From Bacilli bacterium (lineage in GTDB: Bacteria > Bacillota_I > Bacilli_A > RF39 > UBA660): a stretch of 34,058 nt of DNA. Under the pieces are notes generated by a model. The model saw only the letters and a program-made list of their open reading frames with translations. It was not told the origin of the DNA and did no database searches. This document shows positions 3,610-18,529 of the stretch, one piece after another; the stretch's first letter is position 1, and every line of letters begins with the position of its first letter. The translations under genes and the position numbers were made by a program. Location: positions 1 through 34,058 of the forward strand of contig JAFXPU010000018.1 in assembly GCA_017527675.1 (NCBI GenBank), given 5' to 3'.

Positions 3610-4143
3610 ATGAAAAAAGTATTAACCTTATTATTGTTATTACCAATTTTTATAACAGGATGTGGGAAAGATAAAAAAATGGAAACACCATCAGATAAAG
3701 TTAAAAATTATCTAGATAGTTATATAAATTTAGATGATAATGTTTTAACAGATTTAGATGATATGATTGATAATATGACAGATTATAATGATAATCAAAA
3801 AGAAAGATATAAAAAAATAATGAAAAAACATTATGAAAATATATCTTATGAAATTAAGTCTGAACGTGTAGATGATGATGTTGCAACTGTTGCTGTGGAA
3901 ATTGAAGTATTTGATTATAGCCCAATAATCAATAATGAATATGATGAGGAAGATTTCACTTTAGAAGACGGTAGTTACGATGTTGAAAAATTTAATGATT
4001 TTGAATTAGATTTATTTGAAAAGGTGGATAAAAAAACAAGATATACTATAACATTTAATTTATCAAAACAAGATGATGTTTGGGTTATAGATGAACCAGA
4101 TGATATAGTTATTCAAAAAATTCATGGAATATATGCTTATTAG
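3610..4143 (+). CDS. Lipoprotein of unknown function
   Basis: A 177-residue protein with a lipoprotein signal peptide: MKK, a Leu-rich core and the lipobox ITGC with lipidated C18. The mature part is strongly acidic and starts with a helical region (PSDKVKNYLDSYINLDD), followed by beta strands (VATVAVEIEVFDY, YTITFNLSKQDDVWVIDEPD) that resemble the NTF2-like/DUF4878 layout of many Firmicutes lipoproteins. That fold is inferred, not shown. The GGGAGGG site is optimally placed. It lies 39 nt after the Ca2+ pump with no terminator between, so cotranscription is likely. Confidence 0.75.
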   Translation: MKKVLTLLLLLPIFITGCGKDKKMETPSDKVKNYLDSYINLDDNVLTDLDDMIDNMTDYNDNQKERYKKIMKKHYENISYEIKSERVDDDVATVAVEIEVFDYSPIINNEYDEEDFTLEDGSYDVEKFNDFELDLFEKVDKKTRYTITFNLSKQDDVWVIDEPDDIVIQKIHGIYAY

Positions 4144-4158
4144 CATATATTTTTTTTG
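4128..4158 (+). terminator. Terminator spanning the lipoprotein stop codon
   Basis: The arms AATATATGC (4128-4136) and GCATATATT (4143-4151) enclose a 6-nt loop and are followed by a T run. The TAG stop at 4141-4143 is at the loop/arm boundary. Confidence 0.7.
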
Positions 4159-4187
4159 CTATTTTCATATTATTAATAGGTGATAAA

Positions 4188-5246
4188 ATGAAAAAAATAT
4201 TTTATTTAATTATTGGTGTAATGTGTTTATTACCTATTAAAATATTTGCTGTAAATATAACTGCTTCAAGTGCTATTCTTATGGATATGGATTCGAATCG
4301 CATACTTTATTCTAAAGATATACATAATATTAGGAGTGTTGCTTCTATTTCTAAAATTATGACAGCAGTTATAGCTATTGAAAGTGGAAAATTAGATGAA
4401 GTTGTAACAATTGGCGATGAAATAGATAAAGCCTATGGGTCAGGTATATATATAAAAAAAGGTGAGCAGTTATCACTTAGAGATTTAGTATATGGTCTTA
4501 TGCTTCGTAGCGGAAATGATGCAGCATTTGCTATTGCCAAGTATGTTGGTGGTAGTGAATTTATTGAAATGATGAATAATAAAGCAACTGAAATAGGAAT
4601 GATTAATACAACATTTAATAATCCTTGCGGTTTGGATGAAGAAAGTGGTAATTACTCTACTGCCTACGACATGGCTATATTAACCTCATATGCTATGAAA
4701 TTGGATGAATATAAAAAAATAATTGGCACAAAAACCTATAAACTTAAAACTAATAAAAATAACTATATATGGCATAATAAACACAAATTATTAGGTAAAT
4801 ATGAATATGTAACAGGTGGTAAAACTGGTTATACTAAAAAAGCATTACGTACACTTGTAACTACAGCTTCAAAAGATAATTTAAATTTAGTCGCGGTAAC
4901 TTTAAATGATGGAAATGACTTTAAAGATCATATATCATTATTTAAATATGGTTTTGCTAATTATAAAAAAGAAGATATTTTAACTAAAGGTAAAATAAAT
5001 ATATATGATGATATTTACTATGGTATTTATGATTTATCTATTGATAAAAATATAAGTTATCCTATAAATAATCAAGATAATGTTTATTTAAAGTATCGAC
5101 TTGATCAAAAGCCACATGAGGGAAGTGTTGGAACCGTTACATTATATGTTAATGAAAAAGAAGTATTAAATGAGAATGTTGATGCTAAAAAAATTAAAAG
5201 AAAAGAAAGTCATAATATAATAGAATGGTTTGGTAATTTATGGTAA
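4188..5246 (+). CDS. dacB: D-alanyl-D-alanine carboxypeptidase (DacB/DacF type)
   Basis: A 352-residue penicillin-binding protein of peptidase family S11. A signal peptide (MKKIFYLIIG to about A21) sends it across the membrane. The three active-site motifs are intact: S53-I-S-K56 (nucleophile and base), S108-G-N110 and K212-T-G214. The enzyme removes the terminal D-Ala from peptidoglycan pentapeptides. A beta-rich C-terminal domain (about 255-340) ends in a short amphipathic segment (HNIIEWFGNLW) suited to membrane attachment. The order dacB-spmA-spmB-(lipoprotein)-rluB matches the Bacillus subtilis sporulation block, where DacB with SpmA/SpmB controls cortex cross-linking; that suggests the sporulation version of the enzyme. 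Its stop overlaps the spmA start by 7 nt. The AGGTGA site is 4 nt from the ATG. Confidence 0.9.
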   Translation: MKKIFYLIIGVMCLLPIKIFAVNITASSAILMDMDSNRILYSKDIHNIRSVASISKIMTAVIAIESGKLDEVVTIGDEIDKAYGSGIYIKKGEQLSLRDLVYGLMLRSGNDAAFAIAKYVGGSEFIEMMNNKATEIGMINTTFNNPCGLDEESGNYSTAYDMAILTSYAMKLDEYKKIIGTKTYKLKTNKNNYIWHNKHKLLGKYEYVTGGKTGYTKKALRTLVTTASKDNLNLVAVTLNDGNDFKDHISLFKYGFANYKKEDILTKGKINIYDDIYYGIYDLSIDKNISYPINNQDNVYLKYRLDQKPHEGSVGTVTLYVNEKEVLNENVDAKKIKRKESHNIIEWFGNLW

Positions 5247-5812
5247 GTAAGTTGTGGGGATATTTTATTGTAATAGGATGTCTATTTAGTTTGTTTAATG
5301 GAAAAGTTGCAGATGTAAATGAGGAAATAATAAAAAGTGCTAAAACTAGTTTTGACTTAATATGTCAAATATTTCCAATTTTAACATTATGGTTAGGTAT
5401 AACTAAAATAGCTGAGGTTAGTGGTTTAATGAATAAATTAGCTTCAAAATTATCATTTGTTTTAAAACCACTTTTTAAAGATATTCCTAAAAATCATATA
5501 TCATTAAGTTATATGGCTAGTAATATTATAGCTAATTTATTTGGTTTAGGTTCTGCTGCTACTCCTTTTGGTCTAAAAGCAATGGAAAGCCTTCAAGAAT
5601 TAAATCCTAACAAAATGGAAGCAAGTAGAAGTATGATTATGTTTACAACAATTAATACAAGTGGCTTAACAGTTGTACCAGCTACAGTTATTGCACTAAG
5701 AGTAATGTATGAAAGTAAGTCACCAACAATTATAGTTTTTGCTTCAATTATAGCAACTTTAATGGCAACTATTTCAGGTATTATTTTAAATAAAATAATT
5801 GTAAGGAGGTAA
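5240..5812 (+). CDS. spmA: Spore maturation protein A
   Basis: A 190-residue integral membrane protein of the nucleoside-recognition (Gate) domain family, near the usual SpmA length of about 195. It has several hydrophobic segments and the family motifs NIIANLFGLGSAATPFGLKAM and TINTSGLTVVPATVIALR. SpmA and SpmB act together in spore core dehydration in Bacillus; the transported species, if any, is unknown. The start ATG lies inside the end of dacB (7-nt overlap), implying translational coupling. Its TAA stop is in the same frame as spmB, only 3 nt before the likely spmB start, and its last codons contain the AGGAGG that serves spmB. Confidence 0.92.
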   Translation: MVSKLWGYFIVIGCLFSLFNGKVADVNEEIIKSAKTSFDLICQIFPILTLWLGITKIAEVSGLMNKLASKLSFVLKPLFKDIPKNHISLSYMASNIIANLFGLGSAATPFGLKAMESLQELNPNKMEASRSMIMFTTINTSGLTVVPATVIALRVMYESKSPTIIVFASIIATLMATISGIILNKIIVRR

Positions 5813-5815
5813 AGT

Positions 5816-6316
5816 ATTTCAAATTATATAATTCCATTAATGATATTATTAGTTGTTGGTTATGGTATTTTCAAAAAAATAGATGTATTTGATAATTTTC
5901 TTTTAGGATGTTCAGATAGTTTTAAATTAGTTTTAAAAATTTTTCCTAACCTTTTAGCAATGATTTTTAGTGTCAATATATTAATTAGTAGTGGTTTTTT
6001 AGATTTCTTTTTAAATATAATTTCACCATTAATTAAAATACCTATTGAAATAATATCAATGGCTTTAGTTAGACCTATTTCTGGCAATGCATCTCTAGCT
6101 TTATTAAATAATATATATACAAAATATGGTGTGGATAATTTTTATAGTTTAATGGCATCAGTTGTTCAAGGTTCAACGGATACAACTTTTTATATTTTAG
6201 CATTATATTACGGCAGTATTGGTGTAAAAAAATTAAGATATGCTCCAATTACCAGTTTATTTGCTGATTTTGTGGGCATAATAAGTGCAATAACCATTTC
6301 TTATTTATTATTCTAA
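5816..6316 (+). CDS. spmB: Spore maturation protein B (probable ATT start)
   Basis: About 166 residues, a second Gate-domain membrane protein paired with SpmA. Family motifs include MALVRPISGNASLALLNNIY and GSTDTTFYILALYYGSIGVKK. The first ATG in frame is 5840, but it has no ribosome binding site and would cut the first membrane helix (IIPLMILLVVGYG) nearly in half. AGGAGG at 5804-5809 sits 6 nt before an in-frame ATT at 5816, which restores a SpmB-like N-terminus (ISNYIIPLM). I therefore place the start at ATT; 5840 is the conservative alternative. A readthrough SpmA-SpmB fusion is also possible, because both genes share a frame with one TAA between them. Confidence 0.88.
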   Translation: MSNYIIPLMILLVVGYGIFKKIDVFDNFLLGCSDSFKLVLKIFPNLLAMIFSVNILISSGFLDFFLNIISPLIKIPIEIISMALVRPISGNASLALLNNIYTKYGVDNFYSLMASVVQGSTDTTFYILALYYGSIGVKKLRYAPITSLFADFVGIISAITISYLLF

Positions 6317-6318
6317 TG

Positions 6319-6347
6319 TTGAAAATAATGGATATTTTTGCTATAAT
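6319..6347 (+). promoter_or_regulatory. Strong sigma-A promoter, extended -10
   Basis: TTGAAA (6319-6324), a 17-bp spacer and TATAAT (6342-6347) preceded by TGC. It begins just after the spmB stop and serves the lipoprotein-rluB-pseudopilin transcript. Transcription starts about 10 nt before the ATG, so the leader is little more than the ribosome binding site. Confidence 0.75.
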
Positions 6348-6362
6348 TAAATAGGTGAGAAT

Positions 6363-6794
6363 ATGAAAAAGACAATATTTTTTTTAGCAACAATTTTAAT
6401 CTTAACTGGTTGTGGTAAAAAAGGACCAGAAATTATAAATTTAAAATGTACAAAGACTATATCCGATAGTAAGAGTAGTGTAGTATATGAAAATAAATAT
6501 ACATATGAGGAAGGCAAATTAACAAGTGCTGAAACCGATACGACTTTAACATTTACAACTGAGGGTGCAGATAATTTGGAAACTTTTAAAACCTATGCTG
6601 AATCATCTAAAGATGAATATAATAAAAAAGCTGGTGTTGAGGCAAAATTAACAACGAATGATACTTCCATAAATATTATTGTTAAATATAATCTTGATAA
6701 AATGGAAAAAACAGAAGTTGAAAACAATGGATTTAATAATGATTTAAATACTTTAAGAGAAGCAAAAGAAAAAGAAGGGTATACTTGTAAGTAA
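6363..6794 (+). CDS. Small lipoprotein, DUF1307/YehR-like
   Basis: A 143-residue protein with signal peptide and lipobox LTGC (14-17, lipidated C17). The mature chain starts near a cysteine (LKCTKT, C29), has an alternating strand pattern (VVYENKYTYEEGKLTSAETD), and ends in GYTCK, so a C29-C142 disulfide is possible. Start and end cysteines with this strand pattern recall YehR/DUF1307 lipoproteins of Firmicutes; this is a resemblance only. It has its own strong promoter and leads into rluB with a 9-nt gap. Confidence 0.65.
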   Translation: MKKTIFFLATILILTGCGKKGPEIINLKCTKTISDSKSSVVYENKYTYEEGKLTSAETDTTLTFTTEGADNLETFKTYAESSKDEYNKKAGVEAKLTTNDTSINIIVKYNLDKMEKTEVENNGFNNDLNTLREAKEKEGYTCK

Positions 6795-7532: not shown

Positions 7533-7886
7533 ATGAGTAAAAAGGGATTTACATTAATAGAATTACTAGGAACATTAGTTGTAATAGCTTTAATATCTAT
7601 TTTAGTAGTACCAAGAATTGTTGATTGGTATTCAAATAGTACAGATAATTACAAAGAGTTGAATGAGGAATTAATTATCGAGGCAGCACGTACTTATGTT
7701 GAAGAAAATCCTAATATATATTTAAAAACAGATGGTAGTGTTTATTATATTACTATGCAACAATTAATAAATTATGGTTCGCTAGAAGAAAATAATGTAA
7801 AAAAAGTTGGTAAAGATGATTATGAAGATTCGCAAGTAAAGGTTATTTATAATGGAACTTACTTTGAATATTACTTAGAAAAATAA
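7533..7886 (+). CDS. Type IV pilin-like (pseudopilin) protein
   Basis: A 117-residue protein with a class III signal: MSKKG|FTLIELLGTLVVIALISILVV, with cleavage expected after G5 and the conserved Glu at +5 (E10). The hydrophobic helix is followed by a small soluble domain (about 85 residues, ending FEYYLEK), the size of ComG-type minor pseudopilins. No prepilin peptidase, ATPase or other pilus gene is in the window, so its assembly partners must be elsewhere. It follows rluB by 9 nt and ends in a strong terminator shared with the convergent ferredoxin gene. Confidence 0.85.
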   Translation: MSKKGFTLIELLGTLVVIALISILVVPRIVDWYSNSTDNYKELNEELIIEAARTYVEENPNIYLKTDGSVYYITMQQLINYGSLEENNVKKVGKDDYEDSQVKVIYNGTYFEYYLEK

Positions 7887-7919
7887 AAACATTTTCAAAT
7901 GAAAATGTTTTTTTATTTT
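7885..7919 (+). terminator. Bidirectional terminator between pseudopilin and ferredoxin
   Basis: A perfect 12-bp stem, AAAAACATTTTC (7885-7896) with 7901-7912, and an AAAT loop. A T run follows on the plus strand; on the minus strand the A-rich left flank gives the U tract. It closes both convergent genes. Confidence 0.85.
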
Positions 7920-8101
7920 TCTTCTGTAATAGCTCCAACTGGACATCCTTGAGCTGCATCTTTAGCTTCTTCAATATTAGCATCAGTAGCTTCATTTGTA
8001 GCAGCAGCTAATCCATCATCTTCTATTTCAAATACATCAGGACATATTGCTTGACAAGCACCACATCCAATGCAAACATTCTTATCAACATTAAATTTCA
8101 T
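7913..8101 (-). CDS. fer: Ferredoxin, single [4Fe-4S]-type
   Basis: A 62-residue electron carrier. The start at 8101 is chosen because AGGAGG lies 6 nt upstream and the protein then begins MKFNVDKNVCIGCGAC; the frame stays open to 8161 without a better signal. Cluster ligands are C10, C13 and C16 with C53 in the C-terminal QGCPVGAI motif; C20 is an extra cysteine from the ancestral two-cluster fold. It is acidic, as expected for a low-potential donor. It is monocistronic on the minus strand, with its own promoter and a terminator shared with the pseudopilin gene. Confidence 0.92.
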   Translation of the reverse strand: MKFNVDKNVCIGCGACQAICPDVFEIEDDGLAAATNEATDANIEEAKDAAQGCPVGAITEEK

Positions 8102-8119
8102 ATTATTCCTCCTAGTAAA

Positions 8120-8148
8120 ATTATAGTAAAAACCATATAAAAAATCAA
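8120..8148 (-). promoter_or_regulatory. Sigma-A promoter for ferredoxin
   Basis: On the minus strand TTGATT (8148-8143) and TATAAT (8125-8120) are 17 bp apart; the AGGAGG ribosome binding site follows closely. Confidence 0.7.
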
Positions 8149-8175
8149 TAATATATACCAAAAATATCTATTTTA

Positions 8176-8184
8176 TGTTAAAAT
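8176..8184 (+). promoter_or_regulatory. Extended -10 element for the tail-anchored gene
   Basis: TGTTAAAAT (8176-8184) fits a TGn-TAAAAT extended -10. No convincing -35 is visible. Transcription would start near 8191, which favours the ATG at 8201 over the one at 8183. Confidence 0.4.
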
Positions 8185-8200
8185 GTATATGGTGATTCTT

Positions 8201-8887
8201 ATGGCAAGTAGAATGGATCGATATCGTGTTGGTGAAGGACGTAGTGTCCGTAATCAAGATATATATAAGCAATTAGAGGAATTAGGTACGTATACTAATA
8301 TAGAGGGTATTGCTAGTATAGAAGATAATAATGAGATAGATATTTCTAAAATAAAAGAAATGTTAAATAATCGCGAAAATTATCAAAAGCAAAAAAAATA
8401 TAAAGAACTATTAAATAATGAAGAAAAAGTTGAAAACCTTCAAAAAGATATTGAAGAAATTGAAAAAAAATATGATATAAAAGATGTTTTATCAGATGCT
8501 TTAAAAAATCGTAATGTTATGGAAAATGATAATCATAAAATTGAATTATCAAAATATGAAATAATTAAAGAATTAATTGATAAAAAGAATAAAGAAGAAC
8601 AAAAAGAAGATTTATCTAATAATTTACTTGATGATTTAATTGGTGGTAAAACTGAAAATGAAAAAACAATTAAACAAGTAATTGAGGAAGCTAAAAATGA
8701 ACAAGAATTAGAAGAGACGATGGATAAGTCCTTCTTTACTAATAGTTTAAATTTAACTAATAGTGATTTTGAAAATTTAAAAGAAATGCACACAGATATA
8801 AAGAAAAACAATAAATTGTTAATGATTATATCATTTATTGTTGTAGTTGCTATTATAGCAGTTTTAGTTGTTTTACTAATAAAATAA
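8201..8887 (+). CDS. Tail-anchored coiled-coil membrane protein, unknown function
   Basis: 228 residues from the ATG at 8201, preceded by GGTGAT; an upstream in-frame ATG at 8183 lacks a site. Residues 1-30 are basic and conserved-looking (MASRMDRYRVGEGRSVRNQDIYKQ). Residues 50-195 are charged, helical and coiled-coil-like, with many E/K/N. The last 23 residues form one hydrophobic helix (LLMIISFIVVVAIIAVLVVLLIK), so the protein should be anchored by its C-terminus with the bulk in the cytoplasm. I do not recognise the family. It has its own terminator and is divergent from ferredoxin. Confidence 0.75.
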   Translation: MASRMDRYRVGEGRSVRNQDIYKQLEELGTYTNIEGIASIEDNNEIDISKIKEMLNNRENYQKQKKYKELLNNEEKVENLQKDIEEIEKKYDIKDVLSDALKNRNVMENDNHKIELSKYEIIKELIDKKNKEEQKEDLSNNLLDDLIGGKTENEKTIKQVIEEAKNEQELEETMDKSFFTNSLNLTNSDFENLKEMHTDIKKNNKLLMIISFIVVVAIIAVLVVLLIK

Positions 8888-8890
8888 TAA

Positions 8891-8921
8891 TGTCAACCAA
8901 AAAAGGTTGACATATTTTTTT
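8891..8921 (+). terminator. Terminator overlapping the rpsP promoter
   Basis: TGTCAACC (8891-8898), an A6 loop and GGTTGACA (8905-8912), followed by a T run. The right arm contains the TTGACA -35 box of the next promoter. Confidence 0.8.
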
Positions 8922-8935
8922 GACTGTGGTATATT
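8907..8935 (+). promoter_or_regulatory. Sigma-A promoter for rpsP-khpA
   Basis: A consensus -35 TTGACA (8907-8912), 17-bp spacer and TATATT (8930-8935). The -35 is part of the terminator stem of the preceding gene. Confidence 0.7.
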
Positions 8936-8959
8936 ATTAAAAGTGAATGGAGGGATATT

Positions 8960-9244
8960 ATGGCAGTAAAATTAAGATTAAGAAGAATGGGTGCTAAGAA
9001 AAAACCTTTTTACCGTGTAATTGCCGCTGATTCTAGAAGCCCAAGAGACGGAAGATTTATCGAAGAAGTAGGATACTATGATCCAACAAAAGTTCCTGCT
9101 GATATTAATATTAAAGAAGAAATTGCATTAAAATGGTTAAATCAAGGTGCTCAACCAACTGATACAGTAAGAAGTTTATTTAGTAAAGCTGGAATCATGA
9201 AAAAATTTCATGAATCAAAAGCAACTAAGAAAGAAAGTAAATAA
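8960..9244 (+). CDS. rpsP: 30S ribosomal protein S16
   Basis: A 94-residue bS16, starting with the standard [23 protein letters not shown] signature and [13 protein letters not shown]. It binds 16S rRNA in the 30S body. The Lys-rich tail is normal. Its TAA stop overlaps the khpA ATG (TAATG), so the two are translationally coupled. In Bacillus rimM and trmD follow; here the operon stops after khpA at a terminator. Confidence 0.97.
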
Positions 9245-9486
9245 TGAAACTAGAAGAATTAACTGAATATCTAGTTAAAAATTTAGTTCAAGATAAAGAA
9301 GCCGTATTAGTTGAAAGAGAAGATGGTGATAATGGTATCACTATTACAGTTTTAGTATCAAAAGAAGAAATTGGTGCAGTTATTGGTCGTAATGGTAAAA
9401 TTGCTAATGCAATTCGTACTATTGTACAAGCAGCTGCATATACTACAAAAGCTGGTTTTGTAAAGATAAATATTGATACAAAGTAA
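9244..9486 (+). CDS. khpA: KH-domain RNA-binding protein KhpA
   Basis: An 80-residue single KH domain. The GxxG loop is G48-R-N-G51 within EIGAVIGRNGKIANAIRTIV. KhpA (YlqC) forms a dimer with KhpB in streptococci and affects cell size and small-RNA stability. The position immediately after rpsP is the classical Firmicutes location. It starts on the last base of the rpsP stop codon and ends in a terminator with a GAAA loop. Confidence 0.93.
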   Translation: MKLEELTEYLVKNLVQDKEAVLVEREDGDNGITITVLVSKEEIGAVIGRNGKIANAIRTIVQAAAYTTKAGFVKINIDTK

Positions 9487-9520
9487 AAAATAAGTGAAAA
9501 CTTATTTTTTTTCTTTATTT
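9486..9520 (+). terminator. Terminator after khpA
   Basis: A 10-bp stem AAAAATAAGT (9486-9495) with 9500-9509, a GAAA tetraloop and a long T-rich tail. Confidence 0.8.
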
Positions 9521-9566
9521 TTAAAAAAAATATAGTATAATATAGGAAGAAAAAAGCGGTGATGGT

Positions 9567-10373
9567 ATGCAAAACCTTGTAGAAATAAAGAAATTAGATT
9601 TTAGTTATGGTGAAAAAGTTATATTTAAAGATTTTGATTTGGAGATTAAACCTAAAAGATTTGTAACAATTTTAGGTAAAAATGGTTCTGGAAAAACAAC
9701 CTTAATTAATATTTTAATGGGACTAATTGATTCTAAAGGTAAAATAATTATAGATGGTATTATTTTAAGCAAAGAGACTAAAAAATTTTTGCGAAAGGAT
9801 ATTGGTATTGTATTTGAAAATCCTGATGAACATTTTGTTACCGATAGAGTATATGATGAACTTGCATTTATTTTGGAAAGCCAAGATTATCAAAAAGATG
9901 ATATTGATGACAAAATAGTTAAAGTATCAGAATTAATAGGTATTGAAGATTTATTGAATAGAAAAATAATATCTTTATCAGTTGGTGAAAAACAACTTGT
10001 CGCTTTAGCTATTGCTATTATAAATAAACCAAAATTATTGATAATGGATGAAGGCTTATCTAATGTTGATTCATACTATCGTGAAATAATTTTAAAAATA
10101 TTAAATGTTTTAAGAAAAAGAGGTATGACTATTATTAATATTACTAGTAATTCAGAAGATTCTGTTTATGGAACTGATATTGTTATTATTAATAATGGTA
10201 AAGTTGTTTTAAATAAAACTTTGCTACGTGCATATAAAGAAGAAAAGGAATTTATAAATAGTGGCTTATCCTTGCCACTTATTGCTGATTTATCTTTAAA
10301 ACTAAAGTACTATAATTTAACTAACAAAGTATATATAGATGAGAAGAGTTTGGTGGATGAAATATGGAAATAA
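9567..10373 (+). CDS. ecfA1: ECF transporter ATPase, EcfA-like with altered motifs
   Basis: A 268-residue ABC ATPase of the energy-coupling-factor family, identified by position (EcfA-EcfA-EcfT-TruA) and the NPDEHFVTD segment that ECF ATPases carry after the Q-loop. Walker A is intact (37-44, GKNGSGKT), as is Walker B with the catalytic Glu (IMD161-E162). Other sites deviate: the Q-loop Gln is Glu (E84 in FENPD), the signature LSGGQ reads LSVGE (137-141), the DEPT segment reads DEGL, and the switch histidine is Ser (S194 in NITSNSED). It should sit on the cytoplasmic side bound to EcfT. It overlaps the next gene by 10 nt. Whether it still hydrolyses ATP normally is open. Confidence 0.85.
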   Translation: MQNLVEIKKLDFSYGEKVIFKDFDLEIKPKRFVTILGKNGSGKTTLINILMGLIDSKGKIIIDGIILSKETKKFLRKDIGIVFENPDEHFVTDRVYDELAFILESQDYQKDDIDDKIVKVSELIGIEDLLNRKIISLSVGEKQLVALAIAIINKPKLLIMDEGLSNVDSYYREIILKILNVLRKRGMTIINITSNSEDSVYGTDIVIINNGKVVLNKTLLRAYKEEKEFINSGLSLPLIADLSLKLKYYNLTNKVYIDEKSLVDEIWK

Positions 10374-11200
10374 AGGTAAGTAATATTTATTATAGTATTG
10401 ATGATAAAGATTTATTTAGTAATCTAAGTATTGAATTTAAAGATAATGAGATAACTGGGGTAATTGGACCAGTTGGAAGTGGTAAAAGTATTTTATTAGA
10501 ATTAATAGGTAATTTAAGAGACGTAAATGATGGACAAATTGATATCGGTTCAATTTGTTTAAATGCAAAACCTAAAAAGAAAGATTTGCATAAGCACCAT
10601 AAAGAAGTTGGAATATTATTTCAATCGCCTTATGATCAGATATATAATTTAACAGTTAAAAAAGAGTTGTTCTTGTGCTTAAGTGATTTAAAATTAAGTA
10701 AAGATGAAATAAATGAACGAATTTCTAGTACCTTAAAATTGGTTGAACTAGATGAAAGTTATATGTCTAAAAATCCATTTGATTTAAGTCAAAGTGAACT
10801 TAAGAAAGTTGCTTTAGCAAGTGTTTTGATTAGAAAACCTAAACTATTGCTTTTAGATGAACCAACAGCAGGTTTTGATGCAAGTGGTATAAAAATGCTA
10901 ATAAATATGCTAAAACTTCTAAGAAAAAAAGAAAGTATTACGGCAATTATAGTTTCAAGCGATGTAGACTTTATAAATCAAATTGCTGATGAAATAGTAG
11001 TTTTAAAACAAGGTAAAGTAATTAAAAAGGGTAAAAGGTTGGATGTGTTTAAGGATGAAAAATTCTTAAAGGATAATGGAGTAAATGTGCCAAAGATAAT
11101 TGAATTTGAAAATTATGTTCTTAATGAAAAGGGAATTAAAATTGGATATCGTGAAGAAATAAATGATTTATTGAAGGATATATTTAGATATGCGAAATAG
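10364..11200 (+). CDS. ecfA2: ECF transporter ATPase, second EcfA-like with altered motifs
   Basis: A 278-residue partner ATPase. Walker A is GPVGSGKS (35-42), the Q-loop Gln is present (Q87 in LFQSPYDQIY), and Walker B is LLLLD165-E166-PTAGFD. The signature is strongly altered, LSQSE (141-145) instead of LSGGQ, and the switch histidine is again Ser (S199 in VSSDVDF). An EcfA C-terminal region follows (200-278). In normal ECF complexes the two different ATPases share the two ATP sites, so the changes in both matter. It starts inside ecfA1 and overlaps ecfT by 11 nt, which indicates one tightly coupled operon. Confidence 0.85.
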   Translation: MEIKVSNIYYSIDDKDLFSNLSIEFKDNEITGVIGPVGSGKSILLELIGNLRDVNDGQIDIGSICLNAKPKKKDLHKHHKEVGILFQSPYDQIYNLTVKKELFLCLSDLKLSKDEINERISSTLKLVELDESYMSKNPFDLSQSELKKVALASVLIRKPKLLLLDEPTAGFDASGIKMLINMLKLLRKKESITAIIVSSDVDFINQIADEIVVLKQGKVIKKGKRLDVFKDEKFLKDNGVNVPKIIEFENYVLNEKGIKIGYREEINDLLKDIFRYAK

Positions 11201-11918
11201 TATAAAATCAAGTAATTATTATGGCATTTCTTCATGTGTTCATGAAATGAATCCTATTGTTAAAATATTATGTAGTATTATTTTCGTTTTAATTATATTT
11301 TTGGCAAAAACAATTTGGTTAAATTCTATTTTACTAGTATTATTATGTATTAATATTTTATTAACAAATATTCCAATAAAAGTTTATTTAGGTATAATCA
11401 AAAAGTCTATTTTCTTTATTATATTGATATTCTTAATTGATTATTTTTTGAACGTTAGTTTATATACTAATATTATAATATGTATTAAATTCTTGGAAGT
11501 AATTATATATGCATGTTTAGTTTCTATTACTACAAAACCATTATATATAGTTAAAAGTTTAAATATTATGTTTAGCCCGTTAAAACTAATTGGCATACCT
11601 GTTTATTACATTTCCTTTTTTATCTTGTTTATATTTCAATACATTTCTAATCTATTCGATGTATCAAAACTTATAAACAAAAGTCAAAAAAGTCATGGTA
11701 ATATGAGTTTTATTAAAAAAATGAGATATAAGACTATACCATTATTTGTTATAGATTATCAAAATAGTAAAAAATTAAAAGATAGTATGGATATTAAGCT
11801 ATATGATATAAAGTGGCAAAAAAATCATAGTTTTAAATTTAAATTTACATCATATGATTTAGCGATGCTTATATTATATATATTTGTTTTAATATTAACA
11901 TTTTTTGAAGAGGTATAA
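11190..11918 (+). CDS. ecfT: ECF transporter transmembrane protein EcfT
   Basis: A 242-residue membrane protein beginning with the EcfT-type start (VHEMNPIVKILCSIIFVL) followed by hydrophobic helices and a long cytoplasmic region before a final helix (YDLAMLILYIFVLILTF). EcfT normally has two coupling helices with an Ala-Arg-Gly motif each. The corresponding stretches here read SQKSHGN (about 165-171) and SMDIKLYD (about 199-206), so neither keeps ARG. It should couple the two ATPases to a substrate-binding S component; none is encoded in the window. The stop is 1 nt before the truA start. Confidence 0.82.
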   Translation: MRNSIKSSNYYGISSCVHEMNPIVKILCSIIFVLIIFLAKTIWLNSILLVLLCINILLTNIPIKVYLGIIKKSIFFIILIFLIDYFLNVSLYTNIIICIKFLEVIIYACLVSITTKPLYIVKSLNIMFSPLKLIGIPVYYISFFILFIFQYISNLFDVSKLINKSQKSHGNMSFIKKMRYKTIPLFVIDYQNSKKLKDSMDIKLYDIKWQKNHSFKFKFTSYDLAMLILYIFVLILTFFEEV

Positions 11919-11919
11919 A

Positions 11920-12648
11920 ATGCGCTATTTAATGACATTTTCTTATGATGGTAGTAATTTTTATGGCTACCAAGTTCAAAATAATAAAAGAACAGTTCAA
12001 GGTGAAATTGAAAATTGTTTAACAAAGATAAATGGTAATAAGAAAGTAAGAATAGTGGGCTCTGGTCGCACTGATCGTGGTGTACATGCAATGGGACAAA
12101 GAGCTCATTTTGATTTTAAAGAGATTGATTTGAATAAATTACAAACAAGTTTAAATAAACTATTACCATTAGATGTTTATGTTCAAAAAATTGAAAAAGT
12201 TGAGGATGATTTTCATGCTCGTTTTGATGTTGTAAAAAAAGAATATATATATAAAATTAATATGGGGGAATATAATCCTTTAAAATATAAATATGAATAC
12301 CAGTTAAATAAAAAGTTGGATGTTGATAAAATGAAAGAAGCATCTAAATATTTAATAGGCGAACATAATTTTAAGGCATTTACTAAAACTGATGAAGAAA
12401 AAGATGACTATGTTAGAATAATATATGATATTGATTTTGAAATAAAAAATAATATTTTAACAATTAAGTTTGTTGGCTCTGGTTTTTTAAGATATATGGT
12501 TAGAAATATTGTGGGCTTATTTGTTGAAATTGGCCTTGCTAAAGCTAATTCAAATGTTGCTAAAGCTATTTTAGATTCTTGTGATCGCACGAAGGGTTTT
12601 AAAACATTTAGCCCAAGCGGATTATACTTAAATAAAGTATATTATTAG
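11920..12648 (+). CDS. truA: tRNA pseudouridine synthase A
   Basis: A 242-residue enzyme making pseudouridine at positions 38-40 of tRNA anticodon arms. The catalytic motif is GSGRTDRGVHAMGQ with D52 as nucleophile. Other TruA motifs are FSYDGSNFYGYQ near the start and GSGFLRYMVRNIVG in the C-terminal half. The start ATG at 11920 has GAAGAGGT upstream; a TTG at 11905 is in frame but lies before that site. truA after ecfA-ecfA-ecfT is the common Firmicutes order. Confidence 0.95.
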   Translation: MRYLMTFSYDGSNFYGYQVQNNKRTVQGEIENCLTKINGNKKVRIVGSGRTDRGVHAMGQRAHFDFKEIDLNKLQTSLNKLLPLDVYVQKIEKVEDDFHARFDVVKKEYIYKINMGEYNPLKYKYEYQLNKKLDVDKMKEASKYLIGEHNFKAFTKTDEEKDDYVRIIYDIDFEIKNNILTIKFVGSGFLRYMVRNIVGLFVEIGLAKANSNVAKAILDSCDRTKGFKTFSPSGLYLNKVYY

Positions 12649-12655
12649 ATTTCTA

Positions 12656-12683
12656 TTGAAAAAAAATAAAAATCTAGTATAAT
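12656..12683 (+). promoter_or_regulatory. Sigma-A promoter for the Pro/Glu/Val/Ala-rich protein
   Basis: TTGAAA (12656-12661) and TATAAT (12678-12683), 16 bp apart. The -10 lies in the recurrent string CTAGTATAAT (12674-12683). Confidence 0.65.
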
Positions 12684-12707
12684 TATATTAGAATATGAGG
12701 TGTTGAT

Positions 12708-13949
12708 ATGAACGAATTAATGATTTTTGATGAGGAAAACAAAGAAGTAAAAAGTTATGCGATTTATTATACAATAAATGAAAGATTTTATGCTATTTAT
12801 ACTACAAAAGAAAAAGATGAAAACAATTATGTAATTTTACATATTGCTAAGGTGTTAAAAGAAGTTAACAATACACCAGAAGGAATTGTTCCAACTGGAA
12901 AATATATAGGTTTAGAAATTTCTGACCAAAGTGAATGGGATAATGCCAAAGCAAATATAGGAGAAATTGTTGCTAATAAACAAAATAACACTCCAACATC
13001 TGTAACATATTTGCCTGTTTCTGAAATAAATGGTATTAGTATTAAAAGTTCTAAAACATTTAAATTAAGAGAGGATGTTGTTGATTCGATTATTGTTAAT
13101 GAAACTGCAACTGTTATTCCAGAAACACCAGCTATTGCTGAAGAGCCTGTTGTGGCTGCTAATCAGGAATTAACACCAACTTCATTGGATAAATTTACTC
13201 CTGAAGTTCCAGTTGTAGCTGAACCAGCAATAGCAGAGGAAGTTTCAGTTGAACCTGTAGTAAGTCCATTTGAAGCGCAGCCAGAAGTTGCACCTGCTGT
13301 TGAAACTCCTTTTGAAGTAACACCTGTAAATGAACCATTGGTTGCTCCAGCAATTGCTCCAAATCCATTTGAAATGCAACCAGATATTGAAATTCCAACA
13401 CCTGTTGTTCAACCAGAGGAACGACCAGTAAATCCATATGAGGTAATGCAACAACAAAGGGCAGAGGAAATGGTAAATGCACTTGCAAATGATAATATGC
13501 AAGATATTGTTGCAGCACCTGTTATACCAGTTTCTGAATTAGAAAATAAAACCGAAGAACCAGTTGGAGAAGAAATTGTAACACCAGTTGCTTCAGAAGT
13601 AGTTCCAGTAGAAGTTGCTGCAGCACCTGCAGAAATACCAACTGAGCAACCATCACAAGTTATAGTTGAAAATAATGTTGAACCAGAGGTTACACCTACT
13701 ATTGAGGCTCCTGCTTCAGAAGTAGCTCCGGTTGATAATAAAGAAGAAGTTATTAGTAGTGAATCATTTGTAGATTCAATTGTTGCTGATGTATCTGATA
13801 TTCTTGATAAAAAAGAGGAAACATCACCAGAGGAAAAAGAAGATTATGAAAGACTATATAATGATGCATTAGAAAAAACAGTTGAGTTAGAAAAGGAATT
13901 GGCTGAACTACATAATAAATTAAATAATATTAAAAATATTATAGAATAA
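12708..13949 (+). CDS. DUF1292-like domain protein with long disordered Pro/Glu/Val/Ala region
   Basis: 413 residues in three parts. Residues 1-110 form a small folded domain (MIFDEENKEVKSYAIYY, YVILHIAKV, SEWDNAKANIGEIV) that resembles DUF1292/YrzB in strand order and in the closing EW motif; this is a pattern match, not certain. Residues 130-350 are low-complexity, rich in P, E, V and A, with four short motifs: SPFEA (186), TPFEV (200), NPFEM (219) and NPYEV (242). Residues 375-413 form a coiled coil (YNDALEKTVELEKELAELHN). There is no signal peptide or membrane segment, so it should be cytoplasmic. Its GC content is locally higher because of Pro/Ala codons. It has its own promoter and terminator. 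Function unknown. Confidence 0.75.
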   Translation: MNELMIFDEENKEVKSYAIYYTINERFYAIYTTKEKDENNYVILHIAKVLKEVNNTPEGIVPTGKYIGLEISDQSEWDNAKANIGEIVANKQNNTPTSVTYLPVSEINGISIKSSKTFKLREDVVDSIIVNETATVIPETPAIAEEPVVAANQELTPTSLDKFTPEVPVVAEPAIAEEVSVEPVVSPFEAQPEVAPAVETPFEVTPVNEPLVAPAIAPNPFEMQPDIEIPTPVVQPEERPVNPYEVMQQQRAEEMVNALANDNMQDIVAAPVIPVSELENKTEEPVGEEIVTPVASEVVPVEVAAAPAEIPTEQPSQVIVENNVEPEVTPTIEAPASEVAPVDNKEEVISSESFVDSIVADVSDILDKKEETSPEEKEDYERLYNDALEKTVELEKELAELHNKLNNIKNIIE

Positions 13950-16017: not shown

Positions 16018-16188
16018 TTATTTATTGTCTTCTAAGCATGCTTCAATCATACTAATAACTACATTATTAAATGAAGTGTTATTTTCTTGTGCAATTTTCT
16101 CAATTTCTTTAACAAGTTTATCTTTTATGTATAATGACTTATAACTAGCTGTTTCTTTGTGCTTAGTCTTTTTAATTTCAAAACTCAT
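16018..16188 (-). CDS. Small ribbon-helix-helix (CopG/Arc-like) protein
   Basis: A 56-residue reading frame on the minus strand. After a basic start (MSFEIKKTKHKETASY) comes the RHH pattern: a short beta strand KSLYIKDKL, helix VKEIEKIAQENN, turn TSFNN, helix VVISMIEACLED. Such proteins bind DNA as dimers and are often autoregulated antitoxins or plasmid/phage repressors. GGGTGAT lies 5 nt before the ATG. It lies between two tRNA arrays and is divergent from a 62-residue coiled-coil ORF; the AT-rich gap between them holds repeated sequences that could be its operator. No toxin is recognisable. Confidence 0.72.
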   Translation of the reverse strand: MSFEIKKTKHKETASYKSLYIKDKLVKEIEKIAQENNTSFNNVVISMIEACLEDNK

Positions 16189-16293: not shown

Positions 16294-16482
16294 ATGAGCA
16301 AATCAGTAGAATATAATGAAAAAATAATTAAAATACAACAAAAGAGAGTAAAAGAATATGAAAAAAAATATCATAGTAAAGATTGTTCTTTTGATGATCT
16401 AAATAACGAAAATATAAAATTATTTAAAAAATATAATAATTTAGAAAAAATAATGAAAGATGAAATGAATGATAACAAGTAA
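16294..16482 (+). CDS. Small coiled-coil protein, unknown function
   Basis: A 62-residue, highly charged helical protein (VEYNEKIIKIQQKRVKEYEKKYHSK, then LNNENIKLFKKYNNLEKIMKDEM) without signal or membrane segment. GGTGAT precedes the ATG, and TATAAT at 16272-16277 provides a -10 without a clear -35. It is divergent from the RHH gene, so the two may be regulated together. I do not recognise a family. Confidence 0.55.
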   Translation: MSKSVEYNEKIIKIQQKRVKEYEKKYHSKDCSFDDLNNENIKLFKKYNNLEKIMKDEMNDNK

Positions 16483-17008: not shown

Positions 17009-17084
17009 GGTTCTATAGCTCAGTCGGTAGAGCACAAGACTGAAAATCTTGGTGTCGGTGGTTCAATTCCACCTGGAACCACCA
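17009..17084 (+). tRNA. tRNA-Phe(GAA)
   Basis: Acceptor GGTTCTA/TGGAACC with one U-G pair, anticodon GAA (loop CTGAAAA), encoded CCA. Last of the second array. Confidence 0.96.
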
Positions 17085-17133: not shown

Positions 17134-17161
17134 AAAAAGGTCAATAATTGTTGACTTTTTT
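17134..17161 (+). terminator. Second terminator-like hairpin carrying the next -35
   Basis: AAAAAGGTCAA (17134-17144) can pair with TTGACTTTTTT (17151-17161) across a 6-nt loop (one G-U pair). Its right arm starts with the TTGACT -35 of the next promoter. Confidence 0.5.
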
Positions 17162-17179
17162 TGAGGTATATTCTATAAT
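17151..17179 (+). promoter_or_regulatory. Sigma-A promoter for the FDENG-repeat operon
   Basis: TTGACT (17151-17156), 17-bp spacer and TATAAT (17174-17179). The leader is short and ends in the AGGAGAGG binding site. Confidence 0.75.
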
Positions 17180-17203
17180 TAGTGTATAGTAGGAGAGGAT
17201 TGA

Positions 17204-17497
17204 ATGAATACAGAAGGTCAAGTTATAAATGTAACAGGTCAAAGTTTCTTAGATGCTGGTGCTAGCTTTGAAGAAATTGGAAATAATCTTATTGAGTACA
17301 TTAATAACATAAAAAAGGAAATGGAAAAATTAAATAGTAGTAAAAATATTCTTTCATCAATTAGATTAGAAAAATCATGCAACAATGTTATTAAGGTTGG
17401 AAAAGATTGCCTTGTAATTGGAGATATTGCTAAAGATATTGGTGCTTCTTATGATGAAATAGATGTTGAAGAACCAAGTATAGGGAGAAATTTATAA
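17204..17497 (+). CDS. Small helical protein, unknown function
   Basis: 97 residues, mostly helical, acidic, without signal peptide or membrane helix. Two long helices (about 14-43, FLDAGASFEEIGNNLIEYIN; and 52-85, IRLEKSCNNVIKVGKDCLVI) with a short link give a WXG100-like hairpin size, but the WXG motif is absent, so that comparison is weak. Two cysteines (C59 and C69) lie in the second helix. It is the first gene of a two-gene operon; its stop overlaps the ATG of the repeat protein (TAATG), suggesting that the two proteins are made in fixed ratio and may interact. Confidence 0.65.
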   Translation: MNTEGQVINVTGQSFLDAGASFEEIGNNLIEYINNIKKEMEKLNSSKNILSSIRLEKSCNNVIKVGKDCLVIGDIAKDIGASYDEIDVEEPSIGRNL

Positions 17498-18510
17498 TGA
17501 ACGAAGAAAATAATTTTGAAATAATTAATACAGAAAATCCAATTGAAAACAAGGTTGATGAATTAAAAGAAGAAATTGATTTAAATAATCTAGATGAAGA
17601 ATTAAAAAATATAGATTTATCTTATGTTAATGATGATACTAATATTGTGGAGCCATCACATGAAAATACTCAAAAGTTATTTGATGATGAAAAACCTAAA
17701 AAAACAAAATATAAGTTTGATGAAAATGGCGTTGTAACATCAGTTTCTAAAAATCCAGAAGAAAAATATGAATTTGATGAAAGAGGATATGTAGTATCTG
17801 TTAACGGTGAAGATGAAATTGAAAAAAAGGCAGATAATGAATCATCACTTTCAAAATACACTTTCGATGAAAACGGTCGTGTGGTATCTGTTAATGGTGA
17901 AGAAGAAATAGAAACAATTTCAGCTCGTGAACCATCACTTCAAAAGTATACTTTTGATGAAAATGGATTAGTTGTTGCTGTTGCAGATGAAAATCAAAAA
18001 TCAAAATACAATTTTGATGAAAATGGTGTAGTAGTTTCTATAAATGACAAAGAAGATACTATTGATGAAAACAATGATATAGTTATGGTTGACTATAATG
18101 AAAAAGTTAAACCGGTTATTGAAGATGGTGTTAGATTTACGTTTGATGAAAACGGCGTAGTAACATCAATTGCTGGTGCTGATGAACCAATTAAAACTGA
18201 AGTTTTATATGATGAAGAAAAGGAAGAAATAGAGTCTCCTACAAATGATTCAGAAAAAGAAAAATCAATAAATATTATTTGTGATTATCGTGAAAAAGTT
18301 AATGCTGAATTTGCAAAAATAAATAAAATAATTGAACTTGCAAAAAAAACGGGAACTTCTAATTCACCATTCGTTGAAGAATCATTTGAAAAAATGAATG
18401 TTTTTAATTTAGTAGATCAAAGATTTAATACAGATTTTGATAATTATCTTGCAGATTTAAATAACAGTGATTTAAATAATGATACAGAATTATCAAATAT
18501 GCAATTTTAA
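17497..18510 (+). CDS. Acidic protein with six FDENG repeats, unknown function
   Basis: 337 residues, very acidic, no signal peptide or membrane segment. After an acidic N-terminus (1-70) come six copies of a unit with consensus KYxFDENGxVxSV, starting at residues 71, 90, 120, 150, 170 and 213. The spacing is variable (19, 30, 30, 20, 43), filled with Glu/Asp/Ser linkers. Each unit looks like a beta-hairpin with a D-E-N-G turn, slightly like the YD repeats of Rhs proteins, but those are large secreted proteins. A separate helical C-terminal domain (about 255-325: INIICDYREKVNAEFAKINK) is repeat-free. I know no family that fits. It is translationally coupled to the upstream helical protein and ended by a terminator. 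Confidence 0.72.
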   Translation: MNEENNFEIINTENPIENKVDELKEEIDLNNLDEELKNIDLSYVNDDTNIVEPSHENTQKLFDDEKPKKTKYKFDENGVVTSVSKNPEEKYEFDERGYVVSVNGEDEIEKKADNESSLSKYTFDENGRVVSVNGEEEIETISAREPSLQKYTFDENGLVVAVADENQKSKYNFDENGVVVSINDKEDTIDENNDIVMVDYNEKVKPVIEDGVRFTFDENGVVTSIAGADEPIKTEVLYDEEKEEIESPTNDSEKEKSINIICDYREKVNAEFAKINKIIELAKKTGTSNSPFVEESFEKMNVFNLVDQRFNTDFDNYLADLNNSDLNNDTELSNMQF

Positions 18511-18529
18511 AAGCCTTAGGGCTTTTTTA
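18509..18529 (+). terminator. Terminator after the FDENG-repeat gene
   Basis: AAAAGCC (18509-18515), TTAG loop, GGCTTTT (18520-18526), continuing in T. The stop codon (18508-18510) is at the base of the stem. Confidence 0.75.

What the first reader, a model, noticed from the sequence alone, without database searches (positions are those of the whole stretch)
17204..18510. Two-gene operon with a new-looking FDENG-repeat protein
Six copies of KYxFDENGxVxSV with variable acidic linkers lie in a cytoplasmic acidic protein that also has a distinct helical C-terminal domain. Codons differ between copies while the residues are kept, pointing to old repeats under selection. The upstream 97-residue helical protein is coupled by a TAATG overlap. 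I know no family with this layout; YD repeats of Rhs proteins are only remotely similar and belong to large exported proteins. Aligned beta-hairpin units on flexible linkers could be a scaffold for multiple identical partners.
Basis: partly seen in the sequence, partly recalled or inferred. Interest (0 to 1): 0.66.

Follow-up and report, generated by a model that had tools for sequence, protein, structure and literature searches.

The report
Orphan T7SSb-type pair with FDENG repeats
The odd repeat protein carries the same short repeated motif that gut-bacterial relatives hang as tails on chaperones of a toxin-export machine (the type VIIb secretion system), so this gene pair is most likely a detached accessory or cargo pair of that machine, not an isolated new repeat family.

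Summary
Two genes (97 and 337 aa) overlap as TAATG, sit behind a near-consensus promoter, end at a terminator before ychF, and the second carries six diverged Y-x-F-D-[E]-[N]-G-x-V units (dN<dS in 13 of 13 usable unit pairs).

The repeat is not unique to this protein. [quoted passage not shown] A scan of about 85,000 species genomes added eight genomes with the same layout. Single-unit tails keep the unit at or near the C-terminus, which suggests a short docking motif used once or many times, not a rigid solenoid.

The window protein lacks DUF4176 and instead ends in a confidently predicted two-helix hairpin. Its 97-aa partner looks WXG100-like: it beats 89 controls against WXG100 profiles and has a correctly placed YxxxD (YDEID), but no WXG. 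The genome has one T7SSb, whose only DUF4176 protein has no such tail. The pair occurs in no other genome searched.

Best reading: an orphan T7SSb adaptor or substrate pair. The T7SSb link is likely; the mechanism is inferred.

The parts
17151..17179 (+). sigma-70-type promoter-like site TTGACT-17 nt-TATAAT
   Evidence: 11 of 12 consensus matches; consensus match only, not proof of function
17191..17198 (+). Shine-Dalgarno-like AGGAGAGG before the first gene
   Evidence: read from sequence
17204..17497 (+). gene 1: 97-aa acidic helical protein, WXG100-like (no WXG motif)
17450..17464 (+). YDEID (residues 83-87), YxxxD/E motif aligned with YEALD, YENLE and the like at the end of helix 2 of WXG100 proteins
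17495..17499 (+). TAATG stop/start overlap coupling the two genes
17497..18510 (+). gene 2: 337-aa acidic protein, FDENG repeats plus C-terminal helical hairpin; no DUF4176 domain
17497..17706 (+). N-terminal acidic region (residues 1-70), predicted mostly disordered
   Evidence: pLDDT below 50 for most of it
17707..17745 (+). FDENG unit 1 (KYKFDENGVVTSV)
17764..17802 (+). FDENG unit 2 (KYEFDERGYVVSV)
17854..17892 (+). FDENG unit 3 (KYTFDENGRVVSV)
17944..17982 (+). FDENG unit 4 (KYTFDENGLVVAV)
18004..18042 (+). FDENG unit 5 (KYNFDENGVVVSI)
18133..18171 (+). FDENG unit 6 (RFTFDENGVVTSI)
18247..18465 (+). C-terminal two-helix hairpin (residues 251-323)
   Evidence: pLDDT about 84-90
18509..18526 (+). 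intrinsic terminator-like site closing the two-gene unit before ychF

Best explanation
The two genes encode an orphan accessory pair of the type VIIb secretion system that this genome carries on another contig. The 97-aa protein is a degenerate WXG100-type helical hairpin that keeps a YxxxD export-arm-like motif. The 337-aa protein ends in a helical hairpin of the kind such partners stack on, and presents six FDENG beta-hairpin motifs on a flexible acidic chain. In relatives the same motifs, one to about twelve copies, hang from the C-terminus of the DUF4176 (Ltc) chaperone. I propose that each FDENG unit is a short docking motif for one common cytoplasmic T7SSb component (a multimer such as EssC is a candidate), that copy number sets avidity, and that here the docking tail was separated from the chaperone and put on a dedicated adaptor that brings its WXG100-like partner to the machine. 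Shown: motif sharing with T7SSb DUF4176 proteins, presence of one T7SSb and a tail-less DUF4176 protein in the genome, domain layout. Inferred: pairing of the two proteins, docking role, target, cytoplasmic location.
For: Unbiased profile search of 288 genomes of the order: the seven genomes other than the window's with three or more matches all carry the units on DUF4176 proteins in T7SSb-type cassettes. Genome-collection scan: 13 of 15 confirmed loci have the same layout and come from uncultured Bacilli-type MAGs; five of the 13 repeat contigs already found; the other two loci are unrelated look-alikes. Ten tested tail proteins all contain Pfam DUF4176 over the cut-off. EssC (TIGR03928) lies in the cassette in L135, L133 and L146 over the cut-off, and as a fragment in L134. 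Own genome: one EssC over the cut-off, four WXG100 proteins and one DUF4176 protein of 123 aa without tail. Single-unit tails keep the unit at or near the C-terminus (L026 ...HYRFDENGIIISE, L128 ...HYRFDENGIIITEEDN). The 97-aa protein scores above all 89 controls and all 60 shuffles against WXG100 profiles of this lineage, and YDEID aligns with the C-terminal YxxxD/E of those proteins. C-terminal hairpin confident. Literature: DUF4176 = Ltc chaperones, retained in the cytoplasm (PMC13355648); WXG100-like Lap1 proteins carry an FxxxD motif needed for export (PMC9600955); a C-terminal helical targeting domain with small helical partners exists in TslA (PMC10730906).
Against: The pair is not in the T7SSb locus. 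hhalign probability for the 97-aa protein is only 27% and Foldseek hits to EsxB and other WXG100 proteins are not significant (E above 1); its AlphaFold model is poor (pLDDT 51). The C-terminal hairpin shows no sequence kinship to WXG100 or Lap groups. Helical hairpins are common and single-sequence helices can be over-confident. T7SSb DUF4176 genes occur in 78 of 288 genomes of the order, so co-occurrence in one genome is weak evidence by itself.
Confidence: 0.45

Rival explanations
1. The pair is an exported T7SSb substrate complex. The 97-aa protein and the C-terminal hairpin of the 337-aa protein form a composite export signal in reverse order, as in TslA, and the FDENG chain is the cargo, an extracellular acidic repeat protein.
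For: C-terminal helical domain plus a small helical partner with YxxxD, encoded as an overlapping pair; neither protein has a hydrophobic signal or membrane stretch; reverse-arranged T7SSb substrates exist (PMC10730906).
Against: The homologous FDENG tails sit on DUF4176 chaperones, a class reported to stay in the cytoplasm (PMC13355648); no toxin domain and no immunity gene nearby; gene order (partner first, then effector) is compatible but not specific; no LXG or GxL motif was tested.
Confidence: 0.25
2. The FDENG chain is a YD/RHS-like or choline-binding-like beta-hairpin repeat protein that has nothing to do with T7SSb; its likeness to the DUF4176 tails is convergence on a DENG turn.
For: One unit passes Pfam RHS_repeat (23.5 bits, cut-off 22); Foldseek of the model lists teneurin, Rhs core and choline-binding hairpin solenoids (best E 0.04); phmmer lists teneurin and Tse5 (E 0.39-0.45); a choline-binding protein was hit as a look-alike (L152).
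Against: No match is significant; spacing is irregular (19, 30, 30, 20, 43 residues) where solenoids need regular spacing; no RHS_repeat at E<=0.01 in ten DUF4176 tails; all other multi-unit hits in the order are T7SSb proteins; the unit is extended beyond the turn (KYxFDENGxVxSV) and occurs in acidic linkers in both settings.
Confidence: 0.17
3. A lineage-specific remnant: FDENG tail and WXG100-like gene escaped from a lost second T7SSb cassette and are now drifting without function.
For: Orphan position beside tRNA genes, no orthologue in 382 other genomes, loss of the WXG motif.
Against: Both frames intact, overlap kept, promoter and terminator present, dN<dS between units (this selection could be ancient).
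Confidence: 0.1

Closest known systems
DUF4176 / Ltc chaperones of T7SSb (PF13780), FDENG-tailed subset in uncultured Bacilli MAGs
   Same: Same repeated unit YxFDxNGxV on acidic linkers, similar copy numbers (1 to about 12), T7SSb context.
   Different: Window protein has no DUF4176 domain, has a C-terminal helical hairpin after the repeats instead of ending with a repeat, and lies outside the T7SSb locus.
WXG100 (PF06013) and WXG100-like Lap1 (DUF3130) / Lap2 (DUF3958) proteins
   Same: 97-aa size, predicted two-helix layout, N-terminal pattern and a C-terminal YxxxD at the same place; outranks controls against WXG100 profiles.
   Different: No WXG motif (turn shortened by about 9 residues), no Pfam or NCBIfam hit.
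TslA with TlaA1/TlaA2 (reverse-arranged T7SSb substrate; PMC10730906)
   Same: Helical domain at the C-terminus and a small helical partner encoded next to it.
   Different: No lipase or other enzyme domain, one small partner instead of two, no immunity gene found.
RHS/YD repeats (PF05593, TIGR01643) and choline-binding repeats
   Same: Hairpin with aromatic-x-aromatic-D-x-x-G core; one unit reaches the Pfam cut-off.
   Different: Irregular spacing, small non-secretory-type protein, related tails do not match the profile.

Membership tests
DUF4176 / Ltc chaperone | DUF4176 domain (PF13780) | tested here: not met
   No PF13780 hit in the 337-aa protein; the only DUF4176 in the genome is the 123-aa protein at C11.
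DUF4176 / Ltc chaperone | Encoded in a T7SSb / LXG toxin locus | tested here: not met
   Pair lies between a tRNA array and ychF on contig C2; T7SSb is on C11.
FDENG-tail class (defined here) | Two or more YxFDxNGxV units on acidic linkers | tested here: met
   Six units, 26-38 bits each against profiles that contain them; phmmer of the whole protein finds tail proteins down to E 8.8e-15.
WXG100 (PF06013) | Profile match over the curated cut-off | tested here: not met
   No hit; hhalign to lineage-specific WXG100 set 27% probability, above all 89 controls.
WXG100 (PF06013) | Helical hairpin of about 100 residues | tested here: inconclusive
   Helices 22-43 and 49-78 predicted, pLDDT 51; top Foldseek rows are WXG100 proteins but E>1.
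WXG100 (PF06013) | W-x-G in the turn | tested here: not met
   Absent; the turn is shortened in the alignment.
WXG100 / T7SS substrate partner | C-terminal YxxxD/E motif | tested here: met
   YDEID, residues 83-87, aligned with YEALD, YEVLD, YENLE and others; short motif, could be chance.
Lap1 (DUF3130) / Lap2 (DUF3958) | Family profile match | tested here: not met
   No such Pfam family at E<=10.
TslA-type reverse substrate | C-terminal helical targeting domain binding small partners, and T7SSb export | not testable with these tools
   Hairpin predicted; binding and export need experiments.
RHS/YD repeat proteins | RHS_repeat / YD profile match | tested here: inconclusive
   One unit 23.5 bits against cut-off 22; TIGR01643 14.2 against 15.8; none at E<=0.01 in ten homologous tails.
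RHS/YD repeat proteins | Regularly spaced tandem units forming a shell in a large exported protein | tested here: not met
   Unit starts 19, 30, 30, 20, 43 residues apart in a 337-aa protein without signal peptide-like stretch.
Choline-binding (CW) repeats | Profile match and about 20-residue tandem units | tested here: not met
   No Pfam hit; irregular spacing.

The most novel reading that the evidence does not exclude
FDENG units are a previously undescribed, modular docking motif of a T7SSb branch in small-genome uncultured Bacilli, carried in 1 to about 12 copies on Ltc chaperones and, in this genome, moved onto a separate adaptor with its own WXG100-like partner; copy number would tune avidity for a multimeric machine component.
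Probability: 0.35. Interest if true: 0.65.

Novelty: new variant of a known kind. Interest (0 to 1): 0.45.

Why it matters
How T7SSb accessory proteins hand toxins to EssC is an open question (PMC13355648 says so directly). A repeated, easily recognised motif that hangs from Ltc chaperones in a whole lineage, and from an unrelated adaptor in one genome, gives a concrete, testable handle: find what the motif binds. It also shows that T7SSb parts can be recognised far from the T7SSb locus by a short motif.

Tried and rejected
Pfam, NCBIfam, PHROGs and PADLOC on both proteins gave no family beyond the marginal RHS_repeat hit. The PADLOC PtuB match (E 0.002) covers the acidic region and is taken as chance. 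L003 (thioredoxin reductase), L005 (phage protein), L025, L027, L152 (choline-binding) and L153 (integrase) were inspected and rejected as look-alikes. Hits of the C-terminal domain and of the 97-aa protein in other genomes (E 8e-4 to 1e-2) were inspected where possible and look like noise. A class-wide profile search was insensitive and gave no further multi-unit genome. Viral contigs, phage and plasmid records gave nothing. Scanning genome contigs with the 97-aa protein gave nothing. A test for FDENG motifs in LXG-like toxins of the fetched loci found only one weak instance (L014), so substrate mimicry of toxin segments is not supported. Conserved synteny with ychF was tested and not found. 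The key Ltc paper (PNAS 2025, PMC12478183) and the S. suis DUF4176 paper (PMC12482557) are not held, so whether they mention such tails could not be checked.

Full report
What is there. The window is one whole 34-kb contig (C2) of a 1.13-Mb, 24-contig genome, 88.6% complete. Between a run of tRNA genes ending at 17084 and ychF lie two overlapping genes, 17204-17497 and 17497-18510, with a TTGACT-17-TATAAT promoter-like site and a terminator-like stem just after the second stop. The surroundings are housekeeping genes (rpsF, ssb, gpsA, the ribosomal-protein operon, SecY). The second protein has six diverged copies of KYxFDENGxVxSV. Shuffled versions of the protein never give more than one, and between units dN is below dS in every computable pair, so the repeats are real, old and were kept by selection on residues.

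Where else the repeat occurs. A profile of the unit searched against 288 genomes of the order returned the window protein and seven genomes with three or more matches: G079, G236, G265, G165, G263, G136, G197. In all seven the units form the C-terminal tail of a DUF4176 protein. The genome-collection scan gave 13 loci with the same layout, eight of them not among the genomes above, all uncultured Bacilli-type MAGs, plus two look-alikes. All ten tail proteins scanned contain PF13780 over the cut-off. The DUF4176-tail gene usually ends a cassette of small genes: about 115 aa, WXG-like about 103 aa, about 165 aa, about 105 aa, WXG-like about 95 aa, about 103 aa, then DUF4176-FDENG; EssC over the NCBIfam cut-off lies in the same fetched stretch in L135, L133 and L146, and an EssC fragment in L134. 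Of 61 distinct DUF4176 ORFs in the fetched loci, 22 carry at least one unit and 19 at least two (the fetched set is enriched for tails, so this is not a frequency estimate). DUF4176 itself is in 78 of 288 genomes of the order. Units number from one to about twelve. Where only one is left it stays at or near the end of the protein (L026 ends ...HYRFDENGIIISE, L128 ...HYRFDENGIIITEEDN). That, and the irregular spacing, argue for a short linear motif used in one or many copies and against a stacked solenoid.

What DUF4176 proteins do. From the literature: DUF4176 proteins, renamed Ltc, bind a disordered region of some LXG toxins, stabilise them and stay in the cytoplasm (stated in PMC13355648); a DUF4176 protein co-purifies with TspA and its Lap partners and supports its secretion (PMC11322744; PMC11481500). 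Small WXG100-like partners carry an FxxxD motif that resembles the YxxxD/E export arm (PMC9600955).

How the window pair differs. The 337-aa protein has no DUF4176 domain. AlphaFold2, with tails of relatives as alignment, gives a mostly disordered N-terminus, strand-turn-strand at the units and a confident two-helix hairpin at residues 251-323. Nothing in the sequence ties this hairpin to a known family. The 97-aa partner has no database hit. Against profiles of WXG100-like proteins of this lineage it scores above 60 shuffles and above 89 controls, as high as or higher than most of the accepted small helical proteins of the same cassettes; the aligned N-terminal pattern and the C-terminal YDEID fall where WXG100 relatives have theirs. 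The model of it is poor, though the best Foldseek rows are B. anthracis EsxB and other WXG100 proteins, none significant. I therefore call it WXG100-like with moderate confidence and not a WXG100 member, because the WXG motif and the profile test fail.

The T7SSb of this genome. One EssC over the cut-off, four WXG100 proteins, a YukD-sized protein, large LXG-like toxins and one DUF4176 protein lie together on contig C11. That DUF4176 protein is 123 aa and has no FDENG unit. The window protein is the only multi-unit FDENG protein found in the genome. So in this genome tail and chaperone are separate.

Interpretation. Most likely the pair belongs to T7SSb biology (my estimate about 0.75). Within that, an adaptor with a multivalent docking chain (0.45) is favoured over an exported reverse-arranged substrate (0.25), because the homologous tails sit on chaperones reported to stay in the cytoplasm. 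The target of the motif is unknown; EssC, a multimer, is my inference only. An unrelated YD-like protein (0.17) and a decaying remnant (0.10) remain possible.

Limits. The pair is single: no orthologue in 383 genomes of the order or in the 98 genus-level samples, and its genus is represented by one genome. The genome is incomplete, so a second T7SSb cassette could be missing. Taxonomic placement beyond uncultured Bacilli is not established here. Novelty is judged against the held open-access literature only; no relevant paper was found that mentions the motif, and the main Ltc paper is not held.

Noticed in passing
L135 (G197:C20:6000-23507): One locus holds parts of two T7SSb units: an FDENG-tailed DUF4176 (L135:5844-6761) directly before essC, and further on an LXG-like toxin region with a second DUF4176 protein whose tail has two units (L135:16861-17433).
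   Followed up: partly
L132:3999-5114; L141:3668-4957: Some tails are long runs of nearly identical units (11 and 12), a sign of recent tandem expansion, unlike the diverged units in the window.
   Followed up: no
L142:2972-4513; L145:2780-4363: Two adjacent FDENG-tailed DUF4176 paralogues, one with few and one with many units.
   Followed up: no
L014:1392-3539, 4048-6729, 7766-13354 (own T7SSb locus, C11): Three large putative T7SSb substrates share a similar N-terminal leader (LKSYKTSFDNEKQ-like / LKNYKINFDREKN-like); the 1862-aa one has a weak transglutaminase-like match.
   Followed up: partly
window 16018-16188 (-) and 16294-16482 (+): Two small ORFs, one ribbon-helix-helix-like by eye, sit inside the tRNA array between tRNA-Lys and tRNA-Leu.
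   Followed up: no
proteins: FDENG tails trigger scattered unrelated Pfam models (MORN_2, AcrF2, DUF6980, DUF5640), some over their cut-off, a source of misannotation for such proteins.
   Followed up: no
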